NCBI RefSeq assembly: GCF_029962835.1
Contig: NC_080577.1
Span: 3,534,001-3,598,000, forward strand
Direction of reading: 5' to 3'
DNA: 64,000 nt
DNA from: Magnolia sinica
Taxonomy: Eukaryota > Streptophyta > Magnoliopsida > Magnoliales > Magnoliaceae
The notes beneath the pieces were generated by a model, which was not told the DNA's origin, did no database searches, and was given only the letters and a program-made list of their open reading frames with translations. A program made the position numbers and the translations under genes. The first letter of the stretch is position 1, and each line of letters opens with the position of its first letter. Shown here in pieces: positions 9,066 through 50,790 of the stretch.

Positions 9066-10526
9066 TTACTCTATTTCGGAAATCACCGTTAAAACCGATT
9101 GATGAGGGTTTTCATGGGAAGGTGTGGTCGTCTTTGGTGGTGGAGGTGGAGCATTGGAAGGAAAAGGGTTGGGCGGCATGTTCAAGCTCCCTAGGCCACC
9201 TTCCAACATTTGGATCACATTCTTCATAGAAGGGCGATCTACAGGATACCACTGTATGCACCAGAGCGCCACAACCGTTAGTTTCTTTGCTATCTCAACA
9301 TCACCCTCTACTTCTACTCTAATCCCCATTTCTTCTCCTTGGATTAGACGATTATAGATCCATTCTGGGAAATACACTTGGCTAGCGTTTTCCACCTGAG
9401 CATCAATGTTCTTCCTTCCTCCAACCATTTCAAGCAACAACATCCCAAAACTATAAACATCTGATTTATAAGAGACGTTTCCAAAGTTCCTTGAAAACAC
9501 TTCGGGCGCAATGTAACCCATTGTCCCTCTGGCTGCAGTCATGGACACAACACTTTCTACCTTGGAGCATAACTTGGCTAGGCCGAAATCGGAAATCTTG
9601 GGATTGAAGTTATCATCCAGCAAAATGTTGTGGGGCTTGATATCAAAATGAAGGATGCGTTGGTCGCATCCCTGATGAAGATATTCAATTCCTCTACCAA
9701 TGCCAATAGCAATGTCACAAAGCTTCTCCCAACCAAGCAACACCCTTGTATTTTCCACCACCGAGAAAATGAATTTATCGAGCGATCTGTTTGGCATGAA
9801 TTCGTAGACCAGGGCTCTGTTGGATCCCTCCGCACAGAAGCCGAGAAGGCTAACCACATTGATGTGGTGAATTTTACCAATGGTACTCACCTCATTAATG
9901 AAGTCTTCTCCATTGCCCTTGTACTTCTCAAGTACCTTAACTGCAACCAAAGTTCCGTTCCGAAGTTTCCCTTTGAAAACGCTACCAAAACCTCCTCGAC
10001 CTAATTTTCTCTTGAATTGTTTAGTCATCCTTTTAATATCCGCATAAGTATATCTCGTGGGCTTGAGATATTTGTACTCTTTTAAGAACTTTTCAATCTT
10101 GATTTGATTTTCTTTTTCCCTCTTTAGATCTGTTTTCCACATACTGTAGACCTTAATAGTTGCAACTGCTGCTGCTAGGATAACAAAACCTCCTATGCAT
10201 ACACCTGGAAATATTACAAAGTTATAGACCAAAAATCCCTAATAAATTAATGATAGATAAAGCGTCTATATTAGTAAATTAATGATAGTGTTGAGAGCTT
10301 TACCAATAATTAACGGCTTTAGCCACCCACCTGAAAAAATAAAAATAAAATAATCATGTAAAGGAAAGATAGGCAACCTTTCGGTATAAAAGAAGTACTT
10401 AAACAACACAACCACCCACACACGCCAGTAGTGGGATTTCACCACCTATGGGTGTCAAACCCAAGACCCTATGTTGAAACTCCTCAGAGTCTATCACTGA
10501 TGTAAGGACTTGAACCCTATTTAACA

Positions 10527-20129: not shown

Positions 20130-20349
20130 ACCCATACTGTGTGGGTTTCCCTCAATCCAAGTGTGATTGGCCTCCCCAATAGGTTAGAGATGGTAAATAA
20201 ACACTATAGTGGGATCTAGGATGCGTTTATTAGCGAGGGTTCAAATACCACTGTTTCCTGTGGTGTGGTCCACTTTAAATTTGGATCTACTTAAATTTTT
20301 GTATCACGTCTCACAATGAATTGAAAAAAAATGAACGGACAGCATGATA
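20130..20349. repeat. Left part of a hairpin module split by the LTR composite
   Basis: This module copy runs up to 'gaacggacagcatgata' and stops exactly at the start of LTR1. Its missing right end ('tgatatacaacaaatcatt', then 'ggtggcccccac') is found 18.8 kb away at 39,158-39,215, directly after LTR3. Read together, the two parts match the module consensus around 'gatggacggcatgg...acatcatggtggg'. The shared TGATA is the target-site duplication. Confidence 0.8.
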
Positions 20350-21587
20350 TGTTGCAAAAATATTGATTTTTATAAAATATATTTTAATAATAAAAAATAA
20401 TATATGATATATAAAGTTGTTTTGAAAAAACACCGTTTTGTGGGTTTTTAGGAATAGTCTTATATGAGAAAGGGAAGAGAAGAAAAAATAGTTTAAATAA
20501 AAATAGTGGAGTATTATAATATTTACTCACCTAGTCCAAGGACTATGGGCCTTGCGCACTGGAACACCCACGCTCGCGCTCGGGCTCAGTCTCGGTCACG
20601 GGCTCGTTGCGAGGGCGTGGGCATGTAAGGCAGTGTAGCTATAGAGGCGCTAGTGGCACACTTTGCACTTCGCACATGCACATCGTGTCGTAGAATGTCG
20701 CTCCCTTCGTGAGACGTGTGCGAGTCGCGGTGCGACTAAGTGGCTAAGACGGGTGACTGGTTGACAGAGAGACTAGAGGACCGGGAGAGAAATCCCTCAG
20801 TATATATAAAGGGACTGAAAAGAGCTGTTGCAGCAAAAACTGTAACAACTATGCCATTAGTGCAGAGACCAGCTGTAACTGTTGTATGGCTAGCCCAACA
20901 GCTAGAAAACGGCTAGCTGCTGTCTCACAACAGTCAGCACGCAGCAGATTAATGGCCATACACAATAGTAAAAAAACGGCCATAAAACGGCTAGTTTTCT
21001 AACAGTCAGAAATGACTTAATGGAATTTATGTCTCTGGACCATAACCCCCTAGCTACCATAGCCTATAAAATGAGGGCCTGGATGGGTTTCCAAACCATC
21101 TTACAACCCAATCCAGCACTACCATACGAATTGAGACAACTCACTACTCCTCTCTCTATACTCCAATAATTCCAGCAAGATAGCAACGGTTGAACATTTG
21201 CAAGAAGAACAGACCAGCGGTGTGGTCTAGAACGGTTCAACTAAACCAGTGACTGAAGACTTGACCAGTGCAGTGGTCTAAATCACAATTTTCTTTTTCT
21301 TTCTTTTGGGATTTTTCTTTTATTGTAGTTCTGCCAGACTGAGTGTAATAGAGTTCCAATAGGTGGGCCTTCGTGTTTGCTGAACGCAGACCCACACCAG
21401 GTTCGTCGTATCTTAGAAGCGATTTGCCTGTAACCCATCAACATACTCAATTCACTTGAGTAGGGGTGAATAATGCTTTAAGGACAGTATTTCAGACGTG
21501 CTTCAGCCTATCCATGTTTCAGATTTATTTGCAATTTTTGGTTTCCACATTATATAGAAATTATATTAATTTGTATAATTTCCAACA
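20350..21587 (+). mobile_element. LTR1, Ty1/copia long terminal repeat (1.24 kb)
   Basis: Starts TGTTGCAAAAATA and ends CCAACA. It is clearly the same family as the LTRs at 32,148-33,448 and 37,866-39,157. By eye it differs from them by about 7% in its first ~200 bp but about 15% in its last ~250 bp. Its left neighbour is a hairpin module with TGATA; its right neighbour is methyltransferase coding sequence, with no primer-binding site. It is therefore not a simple solo LTR and is probably a recombinant. Confidence 0.85.
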
Positions 21588-22336
21588 ACGTCGGCCTTGG
21601 GTATGAAAGAGAACATGTCTCCGGCAACAAACTCCACTTCTGGACAGCTGGGTGCTGTCTCTACCACATGAGGAAGATCTAGTACGGTACAGTTGATGTG
21701 GGGAAATGCCTTGGCGATGGACTGTAAGGTCGTGCCAATACCGCCTCCAATATCCACCAAAGACGTTAACCCTTGGAACACATCCCCATAGCCGTCGATC
21801 AAGGCTCGAACCACTGATCGGGCCCCACCAGCCACTGCGTTATTGAAGATGCCGTTGAGCTCAGGTTGTTTAGAAGCATAGGTCCACATTCTCTCTCCAT
21901 ACAGCCTCTCGAAGGCAGATATACCGGCCTTCCCTTGCATGCAAGAGCCTAATGTATGCCATGCAGATTAGCATTTCTCGTGCATCTGGAATCTGAACAA
22001 TGGTACTATGCTCTTCTCCTTGTTGATCAGGATGAATTTAGTGGCCGAGGTTGACCTGTATGATTCCTCCCCATCATCGGACCCTTCATTTTGGCCGGTG
22101 AAGAGCTGCATGTGCACCAAGTATCGCATGATCCGCCGGAGGATGTCGAGGTTGGTGGAAGGCGTCGGAAGTGAAGCCCCAAGTTGAGAAAGTTTTATGG
22201 GCCGCCCGTGGCCGTGGATCACCTCAGCTATTCCGGTTTCGACGGCACATTTGAGGACGAAGGAATCAATGGCTCCCAATGAATGGTTCCACGCAATTGC
22301 TTGGCCCACCAGCTCTTCTCTCTTAACATTCTCCAT
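21588..22336 (-). pseudogene. Truncated O-methyltransferase, norcoclaurine 6-OMT-like
   Basis: The reading frame starts at 22336 (MENVKREELVGQAIAWNHSL) and runs through the dimerisation region (LRRIMRYLVHMQLF) and SAM-binding motif I (LVDIGGGIG, codons ~193-201) to GDMFSFIPKADV. There LTR1 begins. This is a plant small-molecule OMT; the GDMF-FIPKAD stretch and the N-terminus recall (RS)-norcoclaurine 6-O-methyltransferase of benzylisoquinoline alkaloid synthesis. That substrate is inference from memory of the family. Two lesions are seen: an in-frame TAA at codon 123 (21968-21970), and loss of everything after about codon 249. The lost part includes the catalytic-His (HDW) region of a ~350-residue enzyme. 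No 3' half is seen beyond LTR1, where an unrelated repeat lies instead. Confidence 0.88.
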
Positions 22337-23301
22337 TTCTTAATTCCCCCTCCCGTTGGTGTACCGTACTTACATGGAAAAAGAAACAGGCAAGATTGGA
22401 ACTCAACCTACCCAACCTATAGTTCTGAAACTCAGTTACTCGACTCAAAATTCGATTGAGTCAACTTCAAAGGACCAGAAATCGAGCCAAGTCACTGTGA
22501 AACTCGGTAGCGAGCTTTGACATGGTTCAAAGTTCAAACTCTGCATGCAACCGCATGTACCAGTATGGTAGCAAATGTGTACAAGATCTGAGCCTTTCAT
22601 CAGGTCAGCCTCGCTGGTTAAATATTCTGGCCACTGCTTATATCCTCAGGTGGGCCACATTGTATTGAAATTTTTGTTTTGTACAGCGTGGCCCACCTGA
22701 GGAGTGAAACGACCGGAAATTTGGATCTAAGCAGTGTACCCACCTGATGGAAAGATGGACCTTAAAGATATGTTTATGCTGCCATGTGTTCCTGTAAAAT
22801 AATATAAAGAGGTTTTCTCGAATCCATCCCAATATACAGCAGTAAAATAAATCTTGAGTGATCTAGCCATTAGATTTGGTTTCTTTCAATGACCCAAACC
22901 GATTATTTGGTACGGCTCAGATGGGGATGCCCACTAAAACTCACAGATACAACCCTTCAAATACCCTTCAATCTCTCACACAGGTTATTGGGACCTTTCA
23001 CGTTTAAAACAAAATAGCCAAATTATCATACGGTTGAAATTAATCCAATTGAGAGTTTTTTTTTTTTTTTAATGACTTTCAACTTTATCATCAAAAGTGA
23101 GCCTAGTCAATATATAGGATTTGGATCATTAGAAGATGATCGAGATTCAAAGGCTAAAGTCCCAACCTATCATATTGCAATGGGCAAGTGGGATGTATTT
23201 CACATCATCGGCTCAATCGCAATCGCAATCACAATAGCCAATATCAATAGTAATAGCAATACGTAAGTGAGATGCATTCGAGCCAACCTATCTATATCAA
23301 A
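22337..23301. other. Upstream of OMT relic, repeat fragment
   Basis: Contains a small palindromic repeat at about 22,550-22,810 ('aggtgggccacattg...gcgtggcccacctga') and AT-rich DNA with a T-run at 23,057-23,071 and 'aatcgcaatcgcaatcaca' words at about 23,215-23,260. No gene recognised. The OMT promoter, if kept, would lie here. Confidence 0.5.
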
Positions 23302-26300
23302 GAGTGCAGATCCTCTGCCTCCCGGAGGCAGGAACTCCCTGCCTCCAGCGTTTTCATTGGTCAACGTCACTGCAAGTGCCACCTCATTAATTTTTTAAAT
23401 ATATTAGAAAAAGTACATTTAATAAAAACTATAACGGAGACGTTAAACGAAGCTGTTTGCATGCTGAGTACGGTAAGCGTAACGAGTACAGTCTGTGGAG
23501 CCCACCGTCAATGTCATTCTAGCATTGTATAAACTCCATCCATCCCTTTTATCATCTAATTTTAGGATTTTACAACAAAAATTAATCATATCCAAAGATC
23601 AAGTAGACCACACTACCTGAAACAGTATGAATTGAATTCTACCGTTGAAAAGTTTTTGGGGCCCACGGAAGTTTTATATTAAGATGATATTTGTTTTTGC
23701 CATTCATCCATGTCTTTGTGACCGTATGAACAGTTTGAATGAAAAATAAGAATCATTAGGGGCTAAGAAACACTTCAATGGTGAAAATCAATACTTCTAT
23801 TATTTCCTTTGGTATGGTCTAGTTGAGCTTTTGATATACTTCAGTTTTAGGCTCAACTCCTAAAATGATCTGAAAAAACAGATGGACGGCGTGGATAAAC
23901 CACATGAATTCACAGTAGGCCCAATAGAGTTTACTTAGTACAAAATTACTCGGTATGCAATCCGATTTCATGTTAGACACGGATTTCTGTGAAAGTACAG
24001 TAAGATCCTACGCAAGGATTCCGAATGGGCCCACTGCGACGTTTGTGATAAATCCAACCCGTTCATGCATTTTTAGATATCATTTTAGGACATCATACCA
24101 AAACTAATGAATATACAAAACTCAAATGGGCCACATGAGAGGAAACAGTGGGGATTTAGTGTCCACCGTTGAAATATTTATATGGCCACAAAAGTTTTGC
24201 ACCGGTCTAATATTTTAGTGTTTTCACTTCATCCTAGTAAAAATGACCTTATAAATAGTTTGGATGGCATATAAACATCAAGAGGCCCAGGAAGGTTTCA
24301 ACAGTAGGAATTTCTTTCCCCATTGTTTCATCTTGTATGGCCCAGTTGAGTTTTTGATTATCCTAATTTTTTGTTACATGTCTTAAAATGAGCTCTAAAA
24401 ATGGATGAATGGATTGGAATTCTTATAAACATCACGGTGGACCCCACCATACATCCCAGCGCTGGAACTTCATGCAAAAGGCTTTCCCCAGTGAATCCGC
24501 GTCCACGATTTCCATTGGAAACGTATTGGCTACTCCGCTGCCACTTGGTGCTATGTGGGCCCACCATGATGTATGTGTTTCATCCATGCTGTCCATCTAT
24601 TTTTCTAGATCATTTTATGGTCTGAGACAAAAAATGAGGTATAACCCAATCTCAAGTGGACCACATTACATGAAACAGTGTTAAATGAACGTTAACCATT
24701 AAAAACTTTTTGGGGACCATTAAAGTTTTGGATCAAGCTGATCTTTGTTTTTTCCCTTCACCTGGGTCTTTATGACCAAACCAACAGATTGGATGTCAAA
24801 TAAACAGTACGGTGGGCCTTAGGAGGACTTTAATGATGGATATCCAATCACCATTGTTTTCCTGTGGTGTGGTCCATATGAGATTTATATCCCTCTCATT
24901 TTTGGGATCAACCCCTAAAATTATATGTAAAAATAGATTAACGGAATGGATGAAACACATACATCATGGTGGGGAAGTGATGTCACCCATTTATATGGGT
25001 CCAACTATGATGTATGTTTTGTATCCACACCGTCCATCCATTTGGAGAGATCATTTTAGGGCATGAGCCAAAGAATGAATCAGATCCAAAACTCGAGTGA
25101 ACCCCATCACAGAAAATAGTGGAGAGAGTCACACCTACCATTTATTACAACTGAATCCAATCCAAACTTTGTTACTTTGTCTACTGAACCCTGTCACTTT
25201 GTACTGTAATCCCGTCACTTTGTCTACTGAACCTCGTCACTTTGTACTGCAATTCCGTCACTTTGTCTACTGAACCACGTCACTTTGTATTGCAACCCCG
25301 TCACTTTGTCTACTGAACTCCGTCACTTTGTACTGCAACATCGTCATGTTGTCTACTGTACCCCATCACTTTGTGTTGCAATCTCGTTACTTTGTCTAGT
25401 GAACCCCATCATTTTGTACTGCAACCTCGTCACTTTGTCTACTGAACCCCGCCACTTTGTCTAGTGAACCATGTCACTGTCTAGTGAACCTCGTCACTGT
25501 CTAGTGAACCCCATCACTTTGTACTGCAACCCCGTCACTTTGTCTACTGAACCCCATCACTTAGTACTGCAACATCGTCACTTTGTCTACTGTACCTAGT
25601 CACTTTGTGCAACAACCTCGTCACTTTGTCTACTTTACCTCGTCACTTTGTGAAGTATCCCGTCACTTTGTGATGGGGTTTTACTAGACACAGTGATGGG
25701 GTTAAGTAGAGTTATTGGACAAAGTGATGGGGTTAAGTATGGTTACTGGACAAAGTGACGGGGTACAGTAGACAAAGTGACTGGGTACAGTAGACAAAGT
25801 GACGACGTTGAAGTACAAAGTGATGGGGTTCAGTAGTCAAAGTGACGGGGTTACAGTACAAAGTGATGGGGTTCACTAGACAGTGACGGGGTTGCAGTAC
25901 AAAGTGACAGGGTTCACTAAACAAATTAATAGGGTTCAGTAGACAACGTGACAGGGTTGCAGTACAAAGTGACGGAGTACAGTAGACAAAGTGACGAGGT
26001 TGCAGTACAAAATAATGGGGTTCAGTAGATAAAGTGATGAGGTTGCAGTACAAAGTGACGACGTCACTAGACAAAGTGATGAGATTGCAACACAAAGTGA
26101 CGGGGTACAGTAGACAAAGTGACGGAGTATAATAGACAAAGTGACGATGTTGTAGTACAAAATGACGGAGTTTAGTACATAAAGTGACGGGATTGCAGTA
26201 CAAAGTGACGGGGTTTATTAGACAAAGTGACAAGGTTGCAATACAAAGTGACGGGGTTCAGTAGACAAAGTGACGGGGTTGTAGTTCAAAGTGACGGGGT

Positions 26301-28181
26301 TCAGTAGACAAAGTGACGCGGTTTGGATTGGATTCAGTCGTAATAAATGGTGGGCGTGACTCTCTCCACAGTTTTCTATGGTGGGGTCCACTCGAGTTTT
26401 GGATTTGATTCATTTTTTGGCTCATGCCCTAAAATGATCTCTCCAAATGGATGGATGGTGTGGATACAAAACATACATCATAGTGGGACCCAGATAAATG
26501 GGTGACATCACTTCTCCACTATGATGTATGTGTTTCATCCATTCCGTTAATATATTTTTACATATAATTTTAGGGTTGATCCCAAAATTGAGAGGGATAT
26601 AAATCTCATATGGACCACACTACAGGAAAACAATGGTGATTGGATATCCATCATTAAAGTCCTCCTAAGGCCCACCGTACTGTTCATTTGACATCCAATC
26701 TGTTAGTTTGGTCATAAAGACCCAAGTGAAGGGAAAAATCAAAGATCAGCTTGATTCAAAACTTTTATGGTCCCCAAAAAGTTTTTAATGGTTAACGTTC
26801 ATTCAACACTGTTTCATGTAATGTGGTCCACTTGAGATTGGGTTATACCTCATTTTTGGTCTCAGACCATAAAATGATTTAGAAAAATAGATGGACGGCA
26901 TGGATGAAACGCATACATCATGGTGGGCCCACATAGCACCAAGTGGCAGGGGAGTGGCCAATAAGTTTTCAATGGAAACCATGGATGTGGATTTACTGGG
27001 AAAAGCGTTTTGCATGAAGTTCTAGCGCTGGATGTATGGTGGGGTCCACCGTGATGTTTATAAGAATTTCAATCCATTCATTCATTTTTAGAGCTCATTT
27101 TAAGACATGTAACCAAAAATTAGGATGATCAAAAACTCAACTGGGACATACAAGATGAAACAGTGGAGAAAGAAATTCCTACCGTTGAAACCTTTCTGGG
27201 CCTCTTGATGTTTATATGCCATCCAAACTGTTTATAAGGTTATTTTTACTAAGATGAAGTGAAAACACCAAAATATTAGATCGATGCAAAACTTTTGTGG
27301 CCATATAAATATTTCAACGGTGGACACTAAATCCCCACTGTTTCCTCTTGTGTGGCCCATTTAAGTTTTGTATATTCATTAGTTTTGGTATGACTTCCTA
27401 AAATGATATCTAAAAAGGGATGAACGGGTTGGATTTATCACAAACGTCGCAGTGGGCCTATCTGGAATCCTTGCACAGAATCTTTATTGCAATAGGCTTT
27501 GGCAGGAAATTCGCGTCTAAAACGTGAAATCGGATTGCGTACCGAGTCTTATCGTACTGAGTAAACTCTATTAGGCCATTGTGAATTCATGTGGTTTATC
27601 CACGCCATCCATCCGTATTTTCAGATCATTTTAGGAGTTGAGCCCAAAATTGAAGTATATCAAAAGCTCAAGTATACCATATCAAAGGAAACAGTGGAAG
27701 TATTGATTTTCACCATTGAAGTGTTTCTAAGCCCCCAATGGTTTTTATTTTTCATCCAAACCCTTCGTAGGAACACAAAGACATAGGTGAATGGAAAAAA
27801 CAAATATCATCTTGATATAAAACTTTCATGTGCCCCAAAAACTATTCAATGGTAGAATTCAATTCACACTGTTTCAGCTGGTGTGGTCCACTTGATCTTT
27901 GGATATGATTAATTTTTGTGGTTTTAGATGATAAAAGAGATGGATGGAGTTGCACGAATGAGAATAACGGTGGGCTCCACAGACTTTACTCACTACGCAT
28001 ACCGTACTGAGGTACTCAGCGCGCAAACCGCTTTCGTTTAACGTCTCCGTTTTAGTTTTTATTGAATGTACTTTTTCTAATATATTTAAAAAATGACGAG
28101 GTGGCACTGACAGTGACGTTGACCAATGAAAACGCTGGAGGCAGGGAGTTCCTGCCTCCGGGAGGCCGAGGATCCACACTC
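23302..28181. mobile_element. Giant inverted-repeat (foldback) element 2
   Basis: Near-perfect mirror architecture over 4,880 bp. Ends: GAGTGCAGATCCTCTGCCTC on the left and the complement of GAGTGTGGATCCTCGGCCTC on the right. Each terminus also contains the short palindrome 'gcctcccggaggc'. Arms of about 1.85 kb (23,302-25,150; 26,335-28,181) each hold three and a half copies of the ~400-bp hairpin module in the same order. The apex is a 1.2-kb minisatellite that changes strand at about 25,670. Arm identity looks about 90-95%. There is no coding capacity. No flanking target duplication is recognisable (left flank 'tatatcaaa', right flank 'agaaatcat'). Best guess: non-autonomous foldback or Mutator-like transposon. 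Confidence 0.78.
25160..26330. repeat. Apex minisatellite, alternating 21-22-bp units, inverted at centre
   Basis: Units of 'ctactgaaccccgtcactttgt' and 'actgcaaccccgtcactttgt' alternate, giving a ~43-bp dimer. From about 25,670 the same units run as the reverse complement ('acaaagtgacggggttcagtag'). The long minus-strand open frame here is a by-product of the repeat length and not a gene. Confidence 0.92.
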
Positions 28182-29184
28182 AGAAATCATTTGTCTAATC
28201 ATAATTTATGGTCCACCCAGCAAGTTACTTCCAACCTTTCATATGAGTGTGACATTCAACTTATCTAATTGGGGTCACCTTGTGCAAAAATGAGTCACAT
28301 CTACCCATGGCATGGTCTCATTTGTGTTTCATTATCTATGGATGGCTAATTTTTGTTTTCTAGGGTGTGGCTCACCTGATGAGTTGATGGGTTTGATTTT
28401 TACAGAAAGTGGTCATCGCGGTGAGACCAATTAGGGTTGGATGTTGCACGTACATAATAAGTTGAAAGTGTTCTATGGGCAGATATCAAACTACGGTTCA
28501 AAAGAACTTACAAATGTTGCCATCAATCCCACGTCATGGCATACGTCTGCCATCAATCCCACGTCATGGCATACGTCTTCCACTATTTAAACTTTCTTGG
28601 CAACAACCAACGCCATTAAAAAGCCAGTCAAACTAAAACAGCGACGGATATCAACCACCCTCTTCTATTTAATAATAAGGAACTATTCGATGGGATTATT
28701 AGATACTCTGGCAGAGTCTGATGCCTAATGCACGGGCAATCAAAAATTGTAGATGTGGCAAAAGTTAGCTCAAATTACACCAAGTCTTGGAAACCACTGT
28801 GACTCATTAACAGTTCCAAATTCAGTTTGGTTGGGCGATCCTGACCTCTGAAATGTGGACGCTTGTTTGTTGAAATATGATTATGGGATAGTTTTTTCAT
28901 TTTTAGCCGTCCAATATTTAGATACCTATGTAAGTGTAATTTTTTGTTCGTGATACATACAAATGCATACAAAAATTTGAATAGTTTAATTTGAATTACT
29001 TGTACCCAGTATATGCAGTTTTCAATTAATTTCTTAGGGCCTGTTGTATACCACCAAATAAGTTGCTTTTTAACTTGTTTTAAGTCATTATATTACTTTA
29101 TTCACTTAAATTAGTTTGATAAATATCATTATAAAAGTAACTTGAGTGTCCAAAGCTACTCTTCTCCGTAAGAAGTAATGTGGA
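28182..29184. other. Intergenic, repeat debris
   Basis: Holds a diverged 'ggtccacccagc...gtggctcacctgatga' repeat (28,200-28,400) and half of a probable MITE at 29,035-29,150 ('ggcctgttgtataccacc...aagtaacttgag'). No gene seen. Confidence 0.5.
28520..28579. repeat. Perfect 30-bp tandem duplication
   Basis: A 30-bp unit beginning 'gccatcaatcccacgtcatg' occurs twice head to tail, apparently without mismatch. This suggests a recent slip. Confidence 0.95.
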
Positions 29185-29915
29185 GCGGGTCGCGGACAGT
29201 TTCACGGCAAGATGGATCAGAAAAGGCCCGGTCGACGATAGAAGTGATCCGGACCGTCAGACCTTAGATCGGGCGTATCTCGCAATCCAGAATGAGTTAT
29301 CTGACGTAAAATATATAATTTTGGGGTAGAACGAGCTACTTTAGCCAACCAACCCAGCTACGCCCGGTTACGCAGTTCGGAATTGCAAAAAACCCCTGGA
29401 TCGACGGTTGTTTTCCTGTTTTAATTTCATTTTTACTATAAATAGTAAGTTTTAGTTTGGTTATAACTCTTCATCCGTCAGGCTTTAGGAGTTGCGCCCA
29501 ATGTGAAAAGAGCTTAGAATAATTAGGAAAACAATTTGGTGAAGTCAAATAGGACACTATTTTTGGCCGAAAACCTTGCGCACTAGTAGACATCATGACC
29601 GTCTATAAATAATAAGTTTACTATTTATAGTAAGTCGCGGATTCTATGAGTTTGAGTTGTAGTTTGATTCTTATTTCTTTCCCATTGCTTAGTACCCCTA
29701 TTTAAAGGGTTGTGAACTCGTTTTTATTTATCAATTAATCAATTTCGAATTTATTAGAGTTTGTTTTTATTTTTTGCTTTCTTTCCTTATCAATTAATCA
29801 ATTTCGAATTTATTAGAGTTTGTTTTTATTTTTTGCTTTCTTTCCTCGTGGATTCGAGAGGTCTCTGCGAGGAGTCCAGAGAAGCTCCGTGAATTCGGAG
29901 TAGTTATCCTCATCA
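29185..29915 (+). repeat. Repeat family G, copy 1 (probable solo LTR or LTR-type fragment)
   Basis: Shares ordered blocks with the reverse-strand copies at 41,915-42,430 and 50,280-50,790: 'ggagcgggtcgcggacag', 'agtgatccggaccgtcag', 'tttaggagttgcgcccaa', 'gtcaaataggacacta', 'ataaatagtaag', and 'gaagctccgtgaattcggag' then 'tagttatcc'. No coding sequence. LTR-like by length and AT-rich 3' part, but the ends and class are not proven. Confidence 0.6.
29729..29846. repeat. Perfect 59-bp tandem duplication
   Basis: A 59-bp unit starting 'tatcaattaatcaatttcg' is present twice in a row within repeat G copy 1. It is absent from the other copies. Confidence 0.92.
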
Positions 29916-30007
29916 TGTTCATCCCTGTGTCAATATATTTTTTTCTTTTTCTTTTTTCTTTTGCTTTTTTCAATAGTTTTTCTACTTCTATCTCTCTCAT
30001 GCTCTAT

Positions 30008-30377
30008 GTCAAGGACCCACATGATGGACGGCGTGCATCACAGGTGGGTCCCACATGATGAATGATCCCATATTAACATAGGCCCACATAATAGATGGTC
30101 CACATCAAAGGTTGCCCCTCTAATGATAGATAGAGTACATCAAAAGCGTGCCGATATGATGGACAACCCACTTCAAAGGTGGGGCCTACATGATGGACAA
30201 TGCACATTAAAGGTGGGATCCACATGATGGGCAATGGACATTGAAGTGAGGCTCCATATGATGGATGTCCCACATCGAGGTGGGGCCCACATGATGAATG
30301 ACCAACATCCAAGGTGAGCATGTATGATGAGCAACCCACATCGGGGCCCACATGATGGACAATCCATATCAAAGGTG
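30008..30377. repeat. Degenerate ~30-bp tandem array
   Basis: About ten to twelve imperfect units of the form 'cacatgatggacaacccacatcaaaggtggggcc'. The array resumes at 30,802-30,968 after an inserted MITE, so it was once continuous. Confidence 0.8.
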
Positions 30378-30384
30378 GGCTTCA

Positions 30385-30801
30385 TGGACGCGGGTTGCGT
30401 CCTATCCTTGCCTGTCTCTAGCCACAAACAAGCAGTTCTGTGGGCGGTCCCACCGTGATGTATCTGTTTATCCACATCGTCCATCTCTTCTCTCATATCA
30501 TTTTAAGGTATGTCAAAAAAAAAGAAAAAAAAAAGAGGCAGATCCAACGCTCAAGTGGACCGCACTAAAGATGACTCTTGCATTTAATGCTTTATGCATT
30601 TAATGCAACCTAAACTTATCATTTGGTGTGGTACACTTGAGCGTTTGATCTACCTCATTTTTGTGCACATACCTTGAAATGATATGAGATAAGGGGTGGA
30701 TGGCATGGATAAACAGATACATCACATCACAATGGGCTTGCCCACAAAACTACCTATTCATGGCTAGAGACGGGCGGGGTTAGGATACAATCCGCGTCCA
30801 G
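30385..30801. mobile_element. Complete hairpin MITE, founder module of the window's main repeat family
   Basis: Inverted ends TGGACGCGGGTTGCGTCCTA and the complement of TGGACGCGGATTGTATCCTA. Mirror symmetry continues inward through 'tctctagcca', 'gatgtatctgtttatccac' and 'aacgctcaagtg' to a centre at 'gcatttaatgctttatgca'. So the entire 417 bp folds into one hairpin. It is flanked by 7-bp direct repeats GGCTTCA at 30378-30384 and 30802-30808, and it interrupts a tandem array. This is the cleanest copy of the 'GTGGGCCCACCATGATGTATGTG' family. No open reading frame. Superfamily unproven; hAT or Mutator-like are the candidates. Confidence 0.85.
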
Positions 30802-30808
30802 GCTTCAT

Positions 30809-30968
30809 ATGATGGATGACTCACATCAAGGTGCACCCCACATGATAGCGGTCCACATCAAAGGTCAGCCCTAATGGTGAGTGGCTCACATCCAAGGCAG
30901 ACCACACATGGTAGATGACCCACATTGAAGGTGGGGCCCACATGATTGACAGTCCATATTGTGGATGT
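30809..30968. repeat. Continuation of the ~30-bp tandem array
   Basis: About five more imperfect units ('tcatatgatggatgactcacatcaagg' type) after the MITE. Confidence 0.75.
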
Positions 30969-32147
30969 TGAATCGCATGCGGAGTCATCACTAGCTAATT
31001 ATTTAGATTTTCACATTCGGCTAAACCTTGTAAAAAAAATTTAAATAAGGAATCAGAGGATCTCTATCCTAAAATGATTCTTGATCTACTACCGAAAATT
31101 ATGGATAAGAGACCACGATGATAAAAAGGGAATGTGTTAGGCACTCTCTCTGCCCGAACAAGCATACGATCTACACTTTACATGAAAAGACAAAATAGCA
31201 GGGATTAAGTCAATTCTTGTTCAGAAATAATGAAAGTATGTGTAATACATTGTGGCGATGTGATGCCTATAACAAGCGATGGACTGAGTCAGACAAGTCT
31301 GTGAGACTCACCCACTTGGAGAAGTAGTCGAAGCCTAGTTAGTTTGAGTTTTTTATGAGAAAGATTTGGTCTATCAGTGAGTCATAGAGCATACACTTGT
31401 ACTGCTAGACCAGTGGGTGAGTTGGAGTTAAGAGGATGATGCACGATACTAATGCAAGTATGAATGAAGTTGATAAGAGTTGAATGGGTAGTGGGTGAAT
31501 GAGTTTATTGTAAAGGTTGCCTTGAGTGTATTGGATCGGCCTCTCGGCTGCTTGGATGGTTAAAATTAGGACTTGATTTATGCTAGAAGGGCTTCCTCTC
31601 TTACACTCTCCCTCTCCTTGGTAGATGGATGAGCCAGATCCCACTCTCATTCTGTCACTCTTCTCTTTCTTAGGCTCTCTTGGTAAATGGTGAGTGTTAA
31701 AAGATAATTTGAAAATAAAATGGGAAGGGCTATTTATATGATTTTGGAATGGATTTTTGCTCATTTTTGAGAAGTTTAGGGGTGAAAAGGCTCTCTAAGG
31801 ACTAGGATTAGCAGCATGAATGAGAGCACCATGTGGCATAACATGTATGGTTTGATAAGGTGACAAAAGGGTGTAATTTTGAATAAAAGTGACGGTGGGG
31901 TCATTCCACCCTAGTGAGTTGCTCCATGCATGCTTGCTAAAGTCACCTTCCCACCTAACCCCACAATAAAATGATGTGGGGTTCCATGTGGTGAGCAGCA
32001 CTTCATATGCTACCCATTACGTGGGTGGGTCGTACTACCCATTACGTGGATGGGGCCGTATTTTTTGCAGGGGTCTTCTATGGGATGGTATTTCTCCACT
32101 AGTCTAGTTGAATTTTTCTTATTATAGTTTTAAATCAAGTGGAGGAT
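30969..32147. other. Old repeat DNA; PPT-like end before LTR2
   Basis: 30,970-31,180 resembles the 'ggagtc...gaatcagag...gtgttaggcac' region often found at the edge of Ty3/gypsy TAT/Ogre-type elements (low confidence). 31,400-31,800 is unclassified. Two near copies of 'tacccattacgtgg' lie near 32,011-32,050. The last ~25 bp ('taaatcaagtggaggat') match the polypurine tract that precedes LTR3, so LTR2 is preceded by a retrotransposon 3' end. Confidence 0.45.
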
Positions 32148-33448
32148 TGTTGCAAAAATAATGATTTTTATAAAATATATTTTAATAATAAAAAATAATA
32201 TATGATATATAAAGTTGTTTTGGAAAAACACCATTTTGTGAGTTTTTAGAAATAGTCCCACATGGGAAAGGGAAGAGAAGAAAAAATGGTTTAAATGAAA
32301 ATAGTGGAGTATTATAATATTTACTCACATAGTTCAAGGACTATGGACCTTGCATGTTCCAGTGCGTAGCACTGGAACACCTGTGCTCACACTCAGACTC
32401 AGACTCAGACTCAGACTCAGACTCAGACTCGGTTACGGTCACGGTCACGGGCTCGGGCTTGGTGCGAGGGCGTGGGCATATGAGGCAGTGTGGCTGTAGA
32501 GGTGCTAGTGGTGCACTTTTCACTTCGCACGTCTGCATCGTGTCGCAGAGGGTCACTCCTTCGTAACCTTGAGTGAACGTGTGCGAGTCACGATGCGACT
32601 AAGTGGCTAAGACGGGTGACTGGTTGACAGAAAGACTAGAGGACTGGGAGAGATATCCCTCAGTATATATAGAGGGACTGAAAAGAGTTGTTGCAGCAGA
32701 AACTGTAACAGCTGTGCCATTAGTGTAGAGACTAGCTGTAACTGCTGCATGGCTAGCCCAACAGCTAGAAAACGGCTAACTGTTGTCTCACAATAGTCAG
32801 CATGCAGCAGATTAATGGCCATGCATAACAGTAAAAAAACGGCCATAAAACAGCTAGTTTTTCAACAGTCAGAAATGGCTTAATGGATCTGGACCATAAC
32901 CCCTTAGCCACCATAGCTTATAAAAGGAGAGTCTGGATGGGTTTTCAAACCATCTCTCAACCCACTCCAGCAGACCCATACGAATTGAGACACAGCTCAC
33001 TACTTCTCTCCAATACTCCACTGGTTCCAGCAAGACAGCAAGGGTTGAACCTTTGCTAGAAGAACAGACCAACGGTGTGGTCTAGAATGGTTCATCGTAA
33101 CCAGTGGCTGAAGAACTAACCAGTGCAGTGGTCTAAATCAAAAGGAATTTCTTCTCTTTCTTTCTTATTTGGGATTTTTTCTATATTGTATTTCTGTCAG
33201 ATAGTGTATACAAGAGTTTCATTTGGTAGGCCTTCGTGTTTGCTGAACGTAGACCCACACCAGGCTCATTGTATCGTAGAAGTGATTTGCCTGTAACCTA
33301 TCAGCATACTCAATCCATTTGAGTAGGGGCAAATAACGCTTTAAGGACAACGTTTTCAGACGAGCTTTAACATGTCCTTATTTAAGCTAATTTTACTTTT
33401 CGGTTTCCATATTATACAGAAATTATATTAATCTGTATAATCTCAACA
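32148..33448 (+). mobile_element. LTR2, 5' LTR of copia element 1 (1.30 kb)
   Basis: TGTTGC...CTCAACA, matching LTR3 at about 93% over the ~530 bp compared by eye. A TATATATAG box lies at about 32,664-32,672. A GACTCA hexanucleotide run lies at about 32,391-32,432. Confidence 0.9.
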
Positions 33449-36400
33449 ATCTTAAAGCGTTATTTTGTAATGGAAGCCGACAGTGTTTCATCCTTCAAGG
33501 TGATGAATCAGGACTTGATACGTCTTGATCGGTTCGATGGAATCAATTTTACAAGATGGCAAGACAAGTTAAAATTTTTCCTGACGGCGCTGAAGATCTA
33601 TTACATATTAGATCCAAATCTGCAAGCACTACCTGAAGCATCCGACAAATACACACCTGAACAGGTGACTACCCGCACCAAAAGAACCGAAGACGAACTC
33701 TTGTGTCGAGGACACATTCTGAACGCTTTCTCCGACCACCTGTATGATCTGTACCAACAGACGTCATCAACAAAGGAGATCTGGGCCACTCTAGAATTCA
33801 AATACAAGGTTGAAGAAGAAGATATCAACAAGTTTTTCATCGTCAGGTATTTTGACTTCATCATGGTAGATAATAAACCGCTGCTGCCCCAAATCCAAGA
33901 ACAACAGCTAATAGTAAACAAAATCAAAGTGATAAAAATCGATCTTCTTGAATCATTCCAAGTTGGGGCTATAATTGCCAAATTGCCACCGATGTGGAAA
34001 GACTAAAGAAAGAAGTTACTGCATAAAATTGAGGACTACACATTGGAATAAATTCAGAAACACATCATAATTGAGGAAGAATCCCGTAACCACGACAGAA
34101 AGAATGATAATGGGAATGCCTCGTCCAAGATACATGCAGTAGAGAATACTAATAACAAACATCTCGAGAAGGACATTCCCTGAAACCCAATAAAGGAAAA
34201 TTCAAGAAAAACACTGAAAAGAAAAACAGAAAGTTCAAAGGCCCATGCCATGTCTGTGAAAAAATCGAGTACTATGCTCGAGTATGTCAATATCACAAAT
34301 CTAAAAAAGAGGCAAGTGCAATAGAAGAAGGCAATATGTAGCTATGATCACTAAGGTGAATACCATCCAAGGCAAAGTTCCAGGGTGGTGGTATGATACT
34401 ACTGTTACAATAAATGTGTACTACGACAAATCAGCCTTCAAAACTTATGAGGAACTGACTGATGGTCAAGAAGTTCAAATGGGTAATGAATCCCGATCGA
34501 AGGTTGTCGGCAAAGGAACTGTCGAACTAATATTCACCTCTAGAAAGAAAGTGATTCTGACTAATGTACTGCACGTCCCAGACATGAGGCGAAACTTAGT
34601 TTCTGGTGATCTTCTGGGAAAACCAGGCATACGAGTGGTGTACGAGTCAGGTAAACTGATTCTGTCCAAGAATGAGAATTTTGTCGGAAAGGGATATGCT
34701 TGTAATGAGATGGTTAAGTTTTCTCTGGATGAAAGTAGTACTTCTGCGTATATAGTTGAATCTGCTGGACTGTGGCATGATAGGCTGGCCCATATAGGGT
34801 ATAGTACCTTGAAGTTCATGGCTAAGAATGATTTAATCTTATATATAGATAATGAAACCGATAAATGTGAAGTGTGCATAAGATAAAAAATGATGAAGAA
34901 AACTTTTTCAAGTATTGAAAGATCGTCTCAAGTATTGGATCTTGTGCATAGTGATATCTGTGAGTTAAATGGCATTCTTACTCATGGAGGTAAACGGTAC
35001 TTCATAACCTTTATAGATTATTGCTCTCTATATATATATGTATGTTTATCTGTTAAAGAGCAAAGATGAAGCATTAAACATGTTTAAAATATATAAAGCA
35101 GAAGTAGAGAATCAACTAAATAAGAAGGTAAAAATTCTCTGTAGCGATAGAAGAGGATAATACTTCTCCAATGAATTCGATAACTTCTGTGAAGAACATG
35201 GACTGATACATTAATGTACAACGCCATACACACATCAACAAAATAGAATAGCTGAAAGGAAGAATAGAATATTTATAGAAATGGTCAACACAATGCTGAT
35301 AAGAGCAAAGTTGTCACTAAGTCTATGGGGTGAAGCATTGCTTGCAGCATGCCATATAATAAACAGAATTTCATCTAAAAAAATATAAAATATCTCCATA
35401 TAAAATATGGAGAGGTAGAAAACCTAACCTAGGATATCTAAAAGTGTGAGGGTGTCTTGCGTATTGCAGAACCCCTGATCCAAAAAGAACTAAGTTAGGA
35501 CCAAGAGCTATTAAGTGCGCCTTCGTAGGGTATGCACAAAATAGTAAAGCTTATAGACTTCTAGACATAGAGTCTAATATAATAATAGAATCAAGAGATG
35601 TTGAGTTCTTTGATAACTCATTAACCTTGGAGTCAAAGGATAATGAAATTCAAACTCCCAATAGAGAATTATATAGCACAGCTCCACAAATAGTAGAAGC
35701 TCCTGTTGAACCTCGTAGGAGTCAAAGGACAAGAATAGAAAAGAGTCTAGGAGATGACTACATAGACTCACAACGCATCATTTTTCATCTTCTAGAATGA
35801 GATAGAGAAAATGTTATAAGAAAAATACCTATAGTGATGACTATAGAAGATGATCCTAAAATATATAAAGAGACTGTATTCTCTAAAGACTCGGCTTTCT
35901 TAAAAGAAGCTATAAATGATGAAATGGAATCCATATTGTCAAATTAAACATAGGAACTAGTAAACTTACCTCCAGGTTCTAGACCCATAGGTTGTAAGTG
36001 GGTATTTAGGAAGAAATATCACACTGATGGGACTATCCAAACCTTTAAAGCTCGACTAGTAGCTAAGAGTTTTAGACAAAAAGAAGGGATATATTACTTT
36101 GACACATACTATCCTGTAGTTACGATAACATCCATTAGGATATTATTTGTGCTAACTTCCATACATCATCTTTACATCCACCAAATGAATGTAAAAACCG
36201 CATTTCTGAATGGTAACCTCAATGAAGAGGTATACATGGAATAACCTGAAGGTTTTGTTCTACCAGGAAATCAAAATAAAGTATGTAGATTAGTCAAATC
36301 TTTGTATGGATTAAAACAAGCACCAAAACAGTGGCATGAGAAGTTTGATTCCAAAATACTATCTCATGGTTTCATGCATAATGTAGCTGGCAAATGCATA

Positions 36401-37865
36401 TATTCTAAAGTAGATTGTAGTTATATTGTTATTATTTGTCTGTATATTGATGACATGTTAATAATAAGTAATAAAATGGAAGGTGTGACTGAAACAAAGA
36501 TGTTTCTATCTTCCGTATTCAAAATGAAGGATCTTGGACAAGTTGATACCATCCTAGGTATCAAAGTTAAAAAATATTGTGGGGGTTATGCTTTGTGTCA
36601 ATCTCATTATATTAAAAAGATACTAAACAAAATTTAACCATCTAAATATAAAGGAAGCAAAAACTCCATTCGATCCAAGTATCAAGCTAAAAGAAAATAC
36701 TGGAAGAACAATTGCACAATTAGAATATGCGAGTGCTATAGGAAGTCTTATATATGCTATGCAATACACTAGACCTAATGTCGCATATGCTGTGAGTAAA
36801 CTTAGTAGGTTTACTAATAACCTCAATACTGAACACTGGAATGCAATCAGTAGAGTCCTTGGTTACTTAAAAGCAACCAAAGACTTATGATTATTTTATT
36901 TATAATTTCTTACCGTATTGGAAGGATATACCGATGTGAGCTAGATATCGAGTGCAAGGGACAACAAGTTTACTACAGGGTGGGTATTCACCCTAGGAGG
37001 TGCAGCTGTATCTTGGGGATCCAAGAAACAGACTTGCATAACGCATTCGACTATGAAGTCTGAATTTATAACATTGGCTGCAACAGGCAAAGAGGCTGAG
37101 TTGCTAAGGGATCTTCTATTAGAAATTTCTTTCTGTGTAAAGCCTATATCGACTGTGTCACTACATTGTGATAGTGAAGCCACATTAGCTAGAGCCTATA
37201 GCGGCACTTATAATGGTAAGTTTAGACATATCAGTCTTCGACATGATTATGTCAGACAATTAATTCGAGATGGAATCATTATTATTTCTTATGTGAAATT
37301 AAGCAATAACCTGGCAGATCCTTTCACTAAACCTCTACCGAGAGAGGCAGTAAAAACTACATCTAGAGGGATGCTGTTGAAACTCTTCAACCAAAGTTCC
37401 ATTAATGATGGTAATCCAACCTAAAGTCAGAAAATCTCTAATTTTGGGTTTAATGGGTAAGAACAAGTCACTGATATGTGGAAAGTTTTTAGCACTAAAT
37501 TATATAACATCATCCATAATAAATAAGTGTTAAGCGTTACGAAAGAGGGTTGAGTCTTAGAACTTTTAATGAAATCCAGTCTATAAGGACAAGTGTCTTA
37601 TAGTAACGGAGACACTGGAAGCTGAGCAAGATTATGGAAACTCTAACAAACACATAGCGAATACGTGTGTGATTTTTTCGACTCTGTTATTTAGGAATAA
37701 CTGGTTCAACGCTACGGTTACCAGTCATTTCGACAGAGTTTTGAGATACTTACACTAAGGAAATATTAAAATCAAAAGATATCTTTCTTTACGCATATAA
37801 GCTAATTATTCTGGCAGAATTGTTTAACCAAGAAAATATATGTTATAAAAAATCAAGTGGGAGAT
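33449..37865 (+). mobile_element. Copia element 1, decayed internal region (gag-pol)
   Basis: Fossil Ty1/copia interior. Gag starts at 33470 (RLDRFDGINFTRWQDKLKFF), followed by zinc-knuckle and protease regions, a GAG-pre-integrase stretch near 34,760-34,880, integrase core about 34,930-35,450, reverse transcriptase about 35,950-36,640 (YIDDML), and RNase H about 37,050-37,340. It ends in a polypurine tract at about 37,848-37,865. The element is broken, with on the order of ten or more disablements. LTR2-LTR3 divergence of about 7% suggests an insertion some millions of years old, more if the host is a slow-evolving tree. The leader between LTR2 and gag is only about 20 nt and has no TGG-type tRNA primer site. 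Confidence 0.88.
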
Positions 37866-39157
37866 TGTTGCAAAAATATTAATTTTTATAAAATATATTT
37901 TAATAATAAAAAATAATATATTATATATAAAGTTGTTTTGAAAAAATACTATTTTGTGGGTTTTTAGGAATAGTCCCACATGGGAAAGGGAAGAGAAGAA
38001 AAAATGGTTTAAAGGAAAACAGTGGAGTATTATAATATTTACTCACCTAATCCAAGGACTATGAACCTTGCGTGTTCAAGTGTGTAGCACTGGAACACCC
38101 GCGTGCGCGCTCACACTGGCGCTCGGACTCGGTCACGATCACGGGATCGGGATCGGGCTCGGTGCGAGGGCGTGGGCATGTGAGGCAGTGTGGCTGTAGA
38201 GGTGCTAGTGGCGCACTTTGCACTTCGCACGTCCGCATCGTGTCGCAGAGGGTCGCTCCTTCGCGACCTTGAGCGAACCGGAGCGAGACGTGTGCGAGTC
38301 GCGGTGCGACTAAGTGGCTAAGACGGGTGACTGGTTGGCAGAGAGACTAGAGGACTGGGAGAGATATCCCTCAGTATATATAGAGGGACTGAAAAGAGCT
38401 GTTGTAACAGAAACTGTAACAGCTGTGCCATTAGTGCAGAGACCAGCTGTAACTGCTGCATGGCTAGCCCAACAGCTAGAAAACGGCTAGCTGCTGTCTC
38501 ACAACAGTCAGCATGCAGCAGATTAATGGCCATGCACAACAGTAAAAAACGGCCATAAAATGGCTAGTTTTCCAACAGCCAGAAATGGCTTAATGAAATT
38601 TATGTCTCTGGACCATAACCCCCTAGCCACCATAGCCTATAAAAGGAGGGTCTGGATGGGTTTCCAAACCATCTCTCAACCCACTCCAACAAACCCATAC
38701 GAATTGAGACACAGCTCACTACTTCTCTCCAATACTCTAGTGGTTCCAGCAAGACAGCAAGGGTTGAACCTTTGCTAGAAGAACAGACCAACGGTGTGGT
38801 CTAGAACGGTTCATCTGAACCAGTGGTTGAAGAACTGACCAGTGCAGTGGTCTAAATCAAAAGGAATTTCTTCTCTTTCTTTCTTATTGGAGATTTTTTC
38901 TATATTGTATTTCTGCCAAATAGTGTATACAAGAGTTCCATTTGGTGAGCCTTCGTGTTTGCTGAACGCAGACTCACACCAAGCTCGTCGTATCCTAGAA
39001 GCGATTTGCCCGTAACCTATCAGTATACTCAATCCATTTGAATAAGGGCAAATAACGCTTTAAGGACAGTATTTTCAGACGTGCTTCAGTCTGTCCTTAT
39101 TCAAGCTAATTATACTTTTCGGTTTCCATATTATACAGAAATTGTATAATCTCAACA
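37866..39157 (+). mobile_element. LTR3, 3' LTR of copia element 1 (1.29 kb)
   Basis: TGTTGC...CTCAACA, followed by TGATA (39158-39162). This matches the TGATA before LTR1 and not the bases before LTR2 (AGGAT). Confidence 0.9.
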
Positions 39158-39215
39158 TGATATACAACAAATCATTAAGGTGGCCCCCACGGTTAGGCTA
39201 ACACCTAATCCACTT
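39158..39215. repeat. Right end of the split hairpin module
   Basis: 'tgatatacaacaaatcatt' and then 'ggtggcccccac' continue the module that stops at 20,349. See that entry. Confidence 0.75.
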
Positions 39216-41914: not shown

Positions 41915-42430
41915 TCTTAAGGGGGATAACTACTTTAAATCCATGGAGCTTCTCTTAACTCCTTATGGAGATATCTCAAATCCAAGAGAAAAATAAAAAA
42001 ATAGAAATAATTTTCTAAAAATTCAAAATAAATTAATTGCTAATTAAAAATGAGTTTGCAACCCCTTAAATAGTGATACATAGGCTACGAAGAAGTTTTA
42101 GAATCAAACTACAACTAAAACTCCCTAAAATCGTGACTTACTAGTAAACATACTATTTTATAGATGGCCATGGTTTCCACTAGACCTCATGGTTTTCAGC
42201 CAAAAATAGTAAGCGTCCTATTTGGACTAACCACTTCGTTCTCCTAATTTTTAAAAGAAATTTTCGTGTTGTACACAACTCCTAAAGCTAGGTAACTGCA
42301 TCGAATAATTAACTCCGGTTTACGAGATATGCCTGTTTTAAGCTTATGATGGTCCGGATCACTCCCGCCTCCAATCGGGCCTTCTCTGGTCCATCTAGGC
42401 TGTGAAATTGTCCAAGACCAGCTCTACATC
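41915..42430 (-). repeat. Repeat family G, copy 2
   Basis: Reverse-strand relative of 29,185-29,915 (blocks 'gggataactactttaaatcc', 'tagtaagcgtcctatttgga', 'acaactcctaaagctagg', 'atggtccggatcactcc'). It ends about 180 bp upstream of the LRK10L start codon at 42,614, so it probably supplies part of that gene's promoter region. Confidence 0.6.
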
Positions 42431-50279: not shown

Positions 50280-50790
50280 TCACCGTATTCCTCAAGGGGA
50301 TAACTACTTTGAATCTACAGAGCTTCTCTGGATTCCGCATAGAAATACCTCGAATCCATGAAAAGGAAAATAAGAAAATAAAAATAAATTCTAGAAGTTT
50401 GAAATTTCATTATAAATAATAAATTTACTATTTATAGTAAGTGTCCTATCAGACTTAACCACGTTATTCTCCTAATTTTCTAAGCACTTTTCATGTTGGA
50501 CACAACTCCTATAGATCAAAGGATTAAGAGTTATATTCAAACTAATACTTACTATAAATAGTAAAAACAGAAACAAAATATATTTTCGACCGTCGAATTC
50601 GGCATAGGTAGCCCAGCTTAGCCGAGTTGGTTGGCTAAAGCAGCCTCTCCTACCCCAAATCATATATGGTACATCAAGTAACTCATTTCGATTTGTAAGA
50701 TATGCGTGTTTTAAGGTTTTGACAATCTTGATGACTTCGGCCTCCAATCAGGACTTCTCTAGTCCATCTTGGACTTGAAAGTGTCTGCAA
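50280..50790 (-). repeat. Repeat family G, copy 3
   Basis: Reverse-strand relative of 29,185-29,915 and 41,915-42,430. It also contains the block 'ggttggctaaagcagcctct'/'ctaccccaaatcatatatgg', which is found in both arms of foldback element 1 (about 15,870 and 18,300). Confidence 0.6.

What the first reader, a model, noticed from the sequence alone, without database searches (positions are those of the whole stretch)
20345..39162. A 10.6-kb DNA segment sits inside a retrotransposon insertion, bounded by a third LTR
Three LTRs of one copia family lie in line. The outer flanks, not those of the obvious full element, share the target duplication: TGATA at 20345-20349 and at 39158-39162. The outer flanks also read as the two halves of one hairpin-module copy. 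So 20,350-39,157 behaves as one insertion. Yet between LTR1 and LTR2 lie 10.6 kb (21,588-32,147) of unrelated DNA: a truncated methyltransferase, a giant foldback element and other repeats. That segment starts directly after an LTR end without a primer site and finishes with a polypurine tract before LTR2. The simplest model is that a segment lying between two LTRs elsewhere (possibly as an extrachromosomal circle) recombined into the left LTR of the TGATA element. The alternative is a large non-autonomous element sharing an LTR with its partner.
Basis: partly seen in the sequence, partly recalled or inferred. Interest (0 to 1): 0.85.

Follow-up and report, generated by a model that had tools for sequence, protein, structure and literature searches.

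The report
Retrotransposon insertion holding copied chromosome segment
A plant retrotransposon insertion with three long terminal repeats contains a copy of a stretch of another chromosome (part of a methyltransferase gene and its upstream DNA), most likely captured by a related element and slotted in by recombination between terminal repeats: an unusual variant of known processes.

Summary
Three LTRs of one copia family lie in line, the outer flanks share TGATA, and the joined outer flanks restore one repeat module, so 20350-39157 behaves as one insertion. The "unrelated" 10.6 kb is now explained: a collinear copy of C1:141013256-141018110 (94.7% identical), i.e. the 5' half of an O-methyltransferase gene plus about 4.1 kb upstream, with two further insertions absent at C1 (a 4.9-kb foldback and a 0.76-kb repeat). 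C1 is uninterrupted at the joint, and no family LTR was found in the 38 kb read there. The copy starts at an intact LTR end and finishes, through 4-bp microhomology, 12 bp before LTR2 at the family's polypurine tract. LTR1 is a two-subfamily chimera (best break 596-611), and outer LTRs 1 and 3 differ too much to stem from one reverse-transcription round. Best reading: an element in the methyltransferase gene captured flanking DNA, and LTR-LTR recombination placed it in the left LTR of the TGATA element. Whether capture went through RNA or through DNA repair is open.

The parts
20345..20349 (+). TGATA, left copy of the target duplication
20350..21587 (+). LTR1, chimera: left ~600 bp of subfamily A, right ~630 bp of a second subfamily (like L075, L076 and L077 = C12:60258130-60259480)
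21588..23301 (+). copied C1 DNA, part 1: O-methyltransferase 5' half on the minus strand (to 22339) and upstream DNA; begins directly after the LTR1 end
23302..28183 (.). foldback insertion (arms ~2.4 kb, 88% alike), absent at C1 (empty site; AAA on both sides)
28184..29176 (+). copied C1 DNA, part 2
29177..29937 (.). 0.76-kb repeat insertion absent at C1; parts of it recur, inverted, at 41996-42288 and 50440-50567
29938..32135 (+). copied C1 DNA, part 3; ends in AAAT shared with the element
32136..32147 (+). polypurine tract of the copia family (CAAGTGGAGGAT) directly before LTR2
32148..33448 (+). LTR2, subfamily A, shared between the captured segment and the gag-pol unit
33449..37865 (+). 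internal region of a copia element (gag, Pol beta-barrel, gag-pre-integrase and RVT_2 matches in separate open stretches)
37866..39157 (+). LTR3, subfamily A
39158..39162 (+). TGATA, right copy of the target duplication

Best explanation
Shown: a copia insertion at TGATA carries, between LTR1 and LTR2, a copy of a 4.9-kb stretch of chromosome C1 (5' half of an O-methyltransferase gene and its upstream DNA), joined to an intact LTR end on the left and to the family's polypurine tract on the right; LTR1 is a recombinant of two LTR subfamilies. Inferred, in order: (1) an element of the second subfamily inserted in that methyltransferase gene (expected 5-bp duplication RCGTC), in a state not present in this assembly. 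(2) DNA downstream of its 3' LTR was captured. I favour read-out transcription from the LTR into the gene and beyond, with reverse transcriptase switching at AAAT between that RNA and a family RNA just upstream of the polypurine tract; this gives LTR - C1 DNA - polypurine tract - LTR. (3) Because reverse transcription alone would put the gag-pol unit first, the module was placed by homologous LTR-LTR recombination (a one-LTR circle, or a cDNA followed by LTR-LTR deletion) in the left LTR of a resident TGATA element; this left LTR1 chimeric and LTR2 shared. (4) The foldback and the 0.76-kb repeat are separate insertions. The confidence below is for steps 1-3 as a whole with the RNA route. For the core alone (copy of C1, delivered by LTR-LTR recombination) I would say 0.8.
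For: Collinear source. Divergence from C1: 154 transitions and 99 transversions at 4782 sites; transversions per site 0.0207 +- 0.0021, against 0.0173 +- 0.0037 for LTR2-LTR3 (0.022 in that call's larger alignment), so capture and insertion are of similar age. Left joint at the LTR end without the family's ATCTTAAAG start; the 5 distinct methyltransferase loci printed read GCATAACAG|CGTCGG there, so the window departs from the gene at AACA + A/G + CGTC. Right joint: C1 ...CTTAAAT|GCTAATGG, family ...AAAAAAT|CAAGTGG, window ...TTTTAAAT|CAAGTGG; 4 or more shared bases occur at a random joint in 1.7% of 20000 trials. The family's polypurine tract precedes 13 of the 37 other sampled LTRs (one search prints 15; I take L009 and L021 as chance matches in flanks). 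LTR1 chimerism: best break 596-611, 31 of 152 informative sites off, 0 of 20000 shuffles as good. Outer LTRs 1 and 3 differ at K 0.19 in the right part, against 0.08 for LTR2-LTR3 (0.21 and 0.10). Transduction of host DNA by plant LTR retrotransposons is documented (review PMC13317346, passages).
Against: No LTR of the family was found at the C1 methyltransferase today, so the supposed first insertion is not seen. No second copy of the LTR-C1 joint turned up, so no donor is known. The order (captured DNA left of gag-pol) cannot come from reverse transcription plus integrase alone. LTR1's left end should be the sibling of LTR3 under docking; over LTR1 361-660 LTR3 is the nearest copy, but over 1-210 LTR3 ranks only 36th among the sampled copies. 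The family also forms plain tandems: at C8:4114787-4122304 an LTR is preceded by the polypurine tract and followed by gag, so a resident tandem whose first unit was replaced by repair would also fit. One sampled copy (L036) has an LTR followed by gag without ATCTTAAAG, so loss of that start by deletion does occur. The A-to-B switch at LTR1 702-753, which I first read as a jump at the RNA start, is shared by C12:60258130-60259480 and is no evidence. LTR3 has four sampled copies nearer than LTR2, although LTR2's nearest is LTR3, so the pairs cannot be dated apart.
Confidence: 0.45

Rival explanations
1. DNA repair in a resident tandem. The TGATA insertion was a three-LTR tandem of two gag-pol units.
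For: Given a resident tandem and an element in the gene, one repair event suffices; it explains the chimeric LTR1, the LTR end without primer site and the microhomology. A tandem of this family exists in the genome (C8), and tandems are common in plants (PMC11899658: abstract, passages and discussion).
Against: The right joint would fall within 16 bp of LTR2, at the border of the polypurine tract, by accident (about 16 in 4417 bp of internal region). No trace of a first unit beyond those 12-16 bp. It also needs the unseen element in the gene.
Confidence: 0.33
2. One heterodimeric reverse-transcription product inserted whole by integrase (the model of Sabot and Schulman 2007).
For: Outer target duplication.
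Against: That model makes the outer LTRs identical at birth (PMC1950507, results section); here LTR1 and LTR3 differ at K 0.19 in the right part while LTR2 and LTR3 differ at 0.08, and X offers no primer site for the left LTR.
Confidence: 0.08
3. A large non-autonomous element (LTR1-X-LTR2) that shares an LTR with its partner.
For: Polypurine tract before LTR2.
Against: The family's post-LTR sequence ATCTTAAAG..., present after 11 of the 12 sampled LTRs that are followed by gag, is absent after LTR1; LTR1 and LTR2 are not a pair (K 0.14 overall; 0.19 in the right part); no third copy of the non-coding parts of X above 90% was listed.
Confidence: 0.04
4. Assembly join of two loci.
For: Repeats lie at both joints.
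Against: X differs from C1 at 5.3% of aligned sites and carries two insertions that C1 lacks; the joined-flank test and the chimeric LTR1 fit a biological event. Reads were not available.
Confidence: 0.03

Closest known systems
Transduction of host DNA by plant LTR retrotransposons (Rider at tomato SUN; Bs1 of maize)
   Same: An LTR retrotransposon carries a copy of host DNA from one chromosome to another: a 24.7-kb duplication from chromosome 10 to 7 mediated by Rider (PMC4034497, passages); Bs1 and Rider listed as transductions (PMC13317346, passages). That Rider is copia-type and that read-through from its LTR was proposed is recalled.
   Different: Here the module sits in the left LTR of a gag-pol unit, and the LTR beside it is a two-subfamily recombinant, which points to a second, recombination step.
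Tandem LTR retrotransposons sharing internal LTRs
   Same: Three LTRs, two inner regions, one outer 5-bp target duplication (PMC11899658: abstract, passages and discussion).
   Different: In the two rice loci described there in detail both inner regions are element sequence (94% and 99% alike); here one is host DNA from another chromosome.
Complex elements by abnormal template switching (Sabot and Schulman 2007)
   Same: Shared internal LTR with an outer target duplication (PMC1950507: abstract and results section).
   Different: Their criterion of highly alike outer LTRs is not met.

Membership tests
Tandem LTR retrotransposon | single outer target duplication, none at the inner LTR | tested here: met
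Tandem LTR retrotransposon | both inner regions are element sequence | tested here: not met
   X is C1 DNA
LTR-retrotransposon transduction | host sequence copied from an identifiable donor locus | tested here: met
LTR-retrotransposon transduction | donor locus carries, or carried, an element next to the copied DNA | tested here: inconclusive
   no match above 60 bits in the 38 kb of C1 read; another allele may have carried it
LTR-retrotransposon transduction | RNA intermediate | tested here: inconclusive
   polypurine border fits; gaps above 5 bp in X against C1 are 29, 19 and 11 bp, so no intron-sized loss to judge by
Template-switch complex element (Sabot and Schulman) | outer LTRs highly alike | tested here: not met
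Non-autonomous LTR element | primer site after the left LTR | tested here: not met
Non-autonomous LTR element | further copies with an LTR pair | tested here: not met
   for the non-coding parts of X only the window and C1 exceed 90% in the lists (40 scored candidates each); the methyltransferase exon has paralogues at 87-92% on C1, with no family LTR in the stretches read
Ty1/copia, TAR lineage | primer site complementary to the element's own LTR (self-priming) | tested here: met
   15-base complement, perfect in 5 of 11 sampled 5' LTRs and with one or two differences in 6; lineage rule from PMC6317226, passages
Ty1/copia, TAR lineage | reverse transcriptase phylogeny | not tested
   no reference set used

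The most novel reading that the evidence does not exclude
Gene capture by a self-primed copia element proceeds in two steps: read-out RNA is copied with a template switch at the polypurine tract, and the resulting LTR-gene-LTR module then docks by homologous recombination in a resident LTR, so that resident retrotransposons act as landing sites for captured genes.
Probability: 0.33. Interest if true: 0.65.

Novelty: new variant of a known kind. Interest (0 to 1): 0.45.

Why it matters
Donor and acceptor of a retrotransposon-borne copy of host DNA can both be read to the base, with both joints and with empty sites for the insertion and for the foldback inside it. Such cases let one test whether captured host DNA moves by reverse transcription, by recombination between LTRs, or by both. 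The mismatch of the outer LTRs also shows that an outer target duplication alone does not prove that a three-LTR array arrived in one piece.

Tried and rejected
First idea dropped: the A-to-B switch at LTR1 702-753 next to a TATA box looked like a reverse-transcription jump at the RNA start; none of the 37 sampled copies showed it (with L020 and L022 poorly aligned there). One search then listed three places at 92-93% across that stretch. The one locus I could still fetch (C12:60258130-60259480, L077) shows the same switch, so it belongs to an existing subfamily. The remaining chimerism of LTR1 was re-derived against that copy (near-equal breaks range from about 577 to 729 in the two site sets).

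Looked for and not found: a donor copy of X elsewhere (each list scores 40 of 61, 399 and 1368 candidates); a family element in 14 stretches from the methyltransferase loci on C1. Dating the LTR pairs against each other failed: in 5 of 6 other intact pairs at least one LTR does not have its partner as nearest copy (one of these, L034, is badly aligned in its right part). tRNA and Rfam scans of the window found nothing. Eight literature searches, of which I saw listings and starts of abstracts, listed no title or abstract start describing host DNA in one unit of a three-LTR array with a chimeric outer LTR; the library is open-access only. PMC12975422 (passages) added nothing used here.
Full report
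What was checked. The window lies in a plant genome assembly of 1.84 Gb in 127 contigs, at C5:3534001-3598000 (that it is a plant is my reading of its genes). A 5-bp match alone is weak, so I tested the flanks. Joined over one TGATA, they run on into one copy of the local hairpin module: 10 of 23 non-self matches cross the joint by 15 bp or more on each side and six more by 7-13 bp, while two control joins give 0 of 22 and 0 of 1. The outer unit is therefore one insertion, and LTR2-LTR3 is not an insertion of its own.

What the inner segment is. A genome search with the methyltransferase end found one other place that has the upstream DNA as well, C1:141013257-141014214; the exon alone also matches a cluster of paralogues at C1:140.0-140.2 Mb at 87-92%. 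A search with the other end found C1:141016984-141018110 at 94%, and one with the middle found C1:141014982-141015947 at 93%. For these non-coding parts nothing else above 90% over a comparable length was listed. Read against 38 kb of C1, the segment is collinear from 21584 to 23301, 28184 to 29176 and 29938 to 32135. Over 4782 aligned sites it is 94.7% identical. The two gaps in the match are insertions in the window copy: the foldback, for which C1 shows the empty site with AAA on both sides in the window, and a 0.76-kb repeat. So 4.9 kb were copied from C1 and 5.6 kb are other inserted DNA. The copied gene part matches the Pfam dimerisation and O-methyltransferase domains, with one stop between two open stretches; the C1 gene is itself broken in frame.

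The joints. On the left, LTR1 keeps its CAACA end and the methyltransferase begins one base later; C1 and four other loci printed read GCATAACAG|CGTCGG there (three further loci did not match the pattern used). The family's usual post-LTR sequence, present after 11 of 12 sampled LTRs that are followed by gag, is missing. This is what lies beyond the 3' LTR of an element inserted in the gene; the single A could be a changed G of the target duplication or the first base of the element's internal region. On the right, C1 homology ends in AAAT and the next 12 bases are the family's polypurine tract, then LTR2. Four or more shared bases at a random joint occur in 1.7% of trials. A joint within 16 bp of an LTR by accident in a 4417-bp internal region is about a 0.4% event (arithmetic on these lengths).

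The LTRs. I fetched the 37 other LTR places, two found by the right part of LTR1 (of the 39 others listed) and one found by the stretch around its middle (of). LTR2 and LTR3 are of one subfamily throughout. LTR1 belongs with them in its left part and with the second subfamily (L075, L076, L077) in its right part; against LTR3 and L077 the best break is 596-611, with 31 of 152 sites off and 0 of 20000 shuffles as good (the sites are linked, so this is not a probability). LTR3 is its nearest copy over 361-660 but not over 1-210, where LTR3 ranks 36th. Over its full length no other place exceeds 87% among 40 scored of 3049 candidates. Outer LTRs 1 and 3 differ at K 0.19 in the right part, LTR2 and LTR3 at 0.08 (0.21 and 0.10). 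By the criterion of Sabot and Schulman (PMC1950507, results section) the array was not made in one reverse-transcription round. A result against my earlier reading: a switch at 702-753 beside a TATA box is shared by the C12 copy and says nothing about this locus.

How it most likely arose. A second-subfamily element sat in the methyltransferase gene; its LTR end and the DNA beyond it were captured; the capture ended at a polypurine tract; and LTR-LTR exchange put the module into the left LTR of the TGATA element. The polypurine border favours reverse transcription of read-out RNA with a template switch. Since reverse transcription alone would leave gag-pol on the left, an exchange step is needed, which the chimeric LTR1 supports. 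The main rival is break repair in a resident tandem, made credible by a plain tandem of the same family at C8. Ages agree with one episode: transversions per site are 0.0207 +- 0.0021 for X against C1 and 0.0173 +- 0.0037 for LTR2 against LTR3. The three LTRs are about equally far apart in their left parts (K 0.089, 0.092, 0.113), so the order of steps cannot be dated.

Known relatives. Transduction by LTR retrotransposons (Rider at SUN, Bs1) and tandem LTR arrays are known kinds. This case combines them and adds an outer LTR that is recombinant. The strand-transfer reasoning and the notion of read-out transcripts are from general knowledge; integrase-independent integration into resident elements is mentioned for yeast in PMC11899658 (passage).

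Noticed in passing
33451-33465 and LTR3 positions 1185-1199: The sequence just after the 5' LTR (CTTAAAGCGTTATTT) is a 15-base complement of a segment in the LTR about 90 bp before its end; perfect in 5 of 11 other sampled 5' LTRs and with one or two differences in 6. This fits self-priming, as predicted for the TAR lineage (PMC6317226, passages).
   Followed up: partly
G000 C8:4114787-4122304 (L048, minus strand): A plain tandem of the same family: LTR, internal region, LTR, then 212 bp of gag start again at the end of the stretch.
   Followed up: partly
L039 and L040 (C6:311320-313139 and 294680-296500): Two solo LTRs with the same near flanks and GTACT on both sides, 16.6 kb apart: the locus was probably duplicated after insertion.
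   Followed up: no
G000 C1:140007000-140202999: A cluster of methyltransferase copies about 0.8 Mb from the copied gene, some partial or with inverted pieces.
   Followed up: no
23302-28183: Foldback with ~2.4-kb arms; its core reads as short tandem repeats (GTCACTTTGT...; period not measured); AAA on both sides against the C1 empty site.
   Followed up: partly
9066-10238 (-) and 44320-45441 (+): A kinase-domain gene (Pfam match for the first) and a similar open frame in opposite orientation (71% over 676 bp), on either side of the insertion.
   Followed up: no
60627-61013: Integrase core match, probably remains of another copia element.
   Followed up: no
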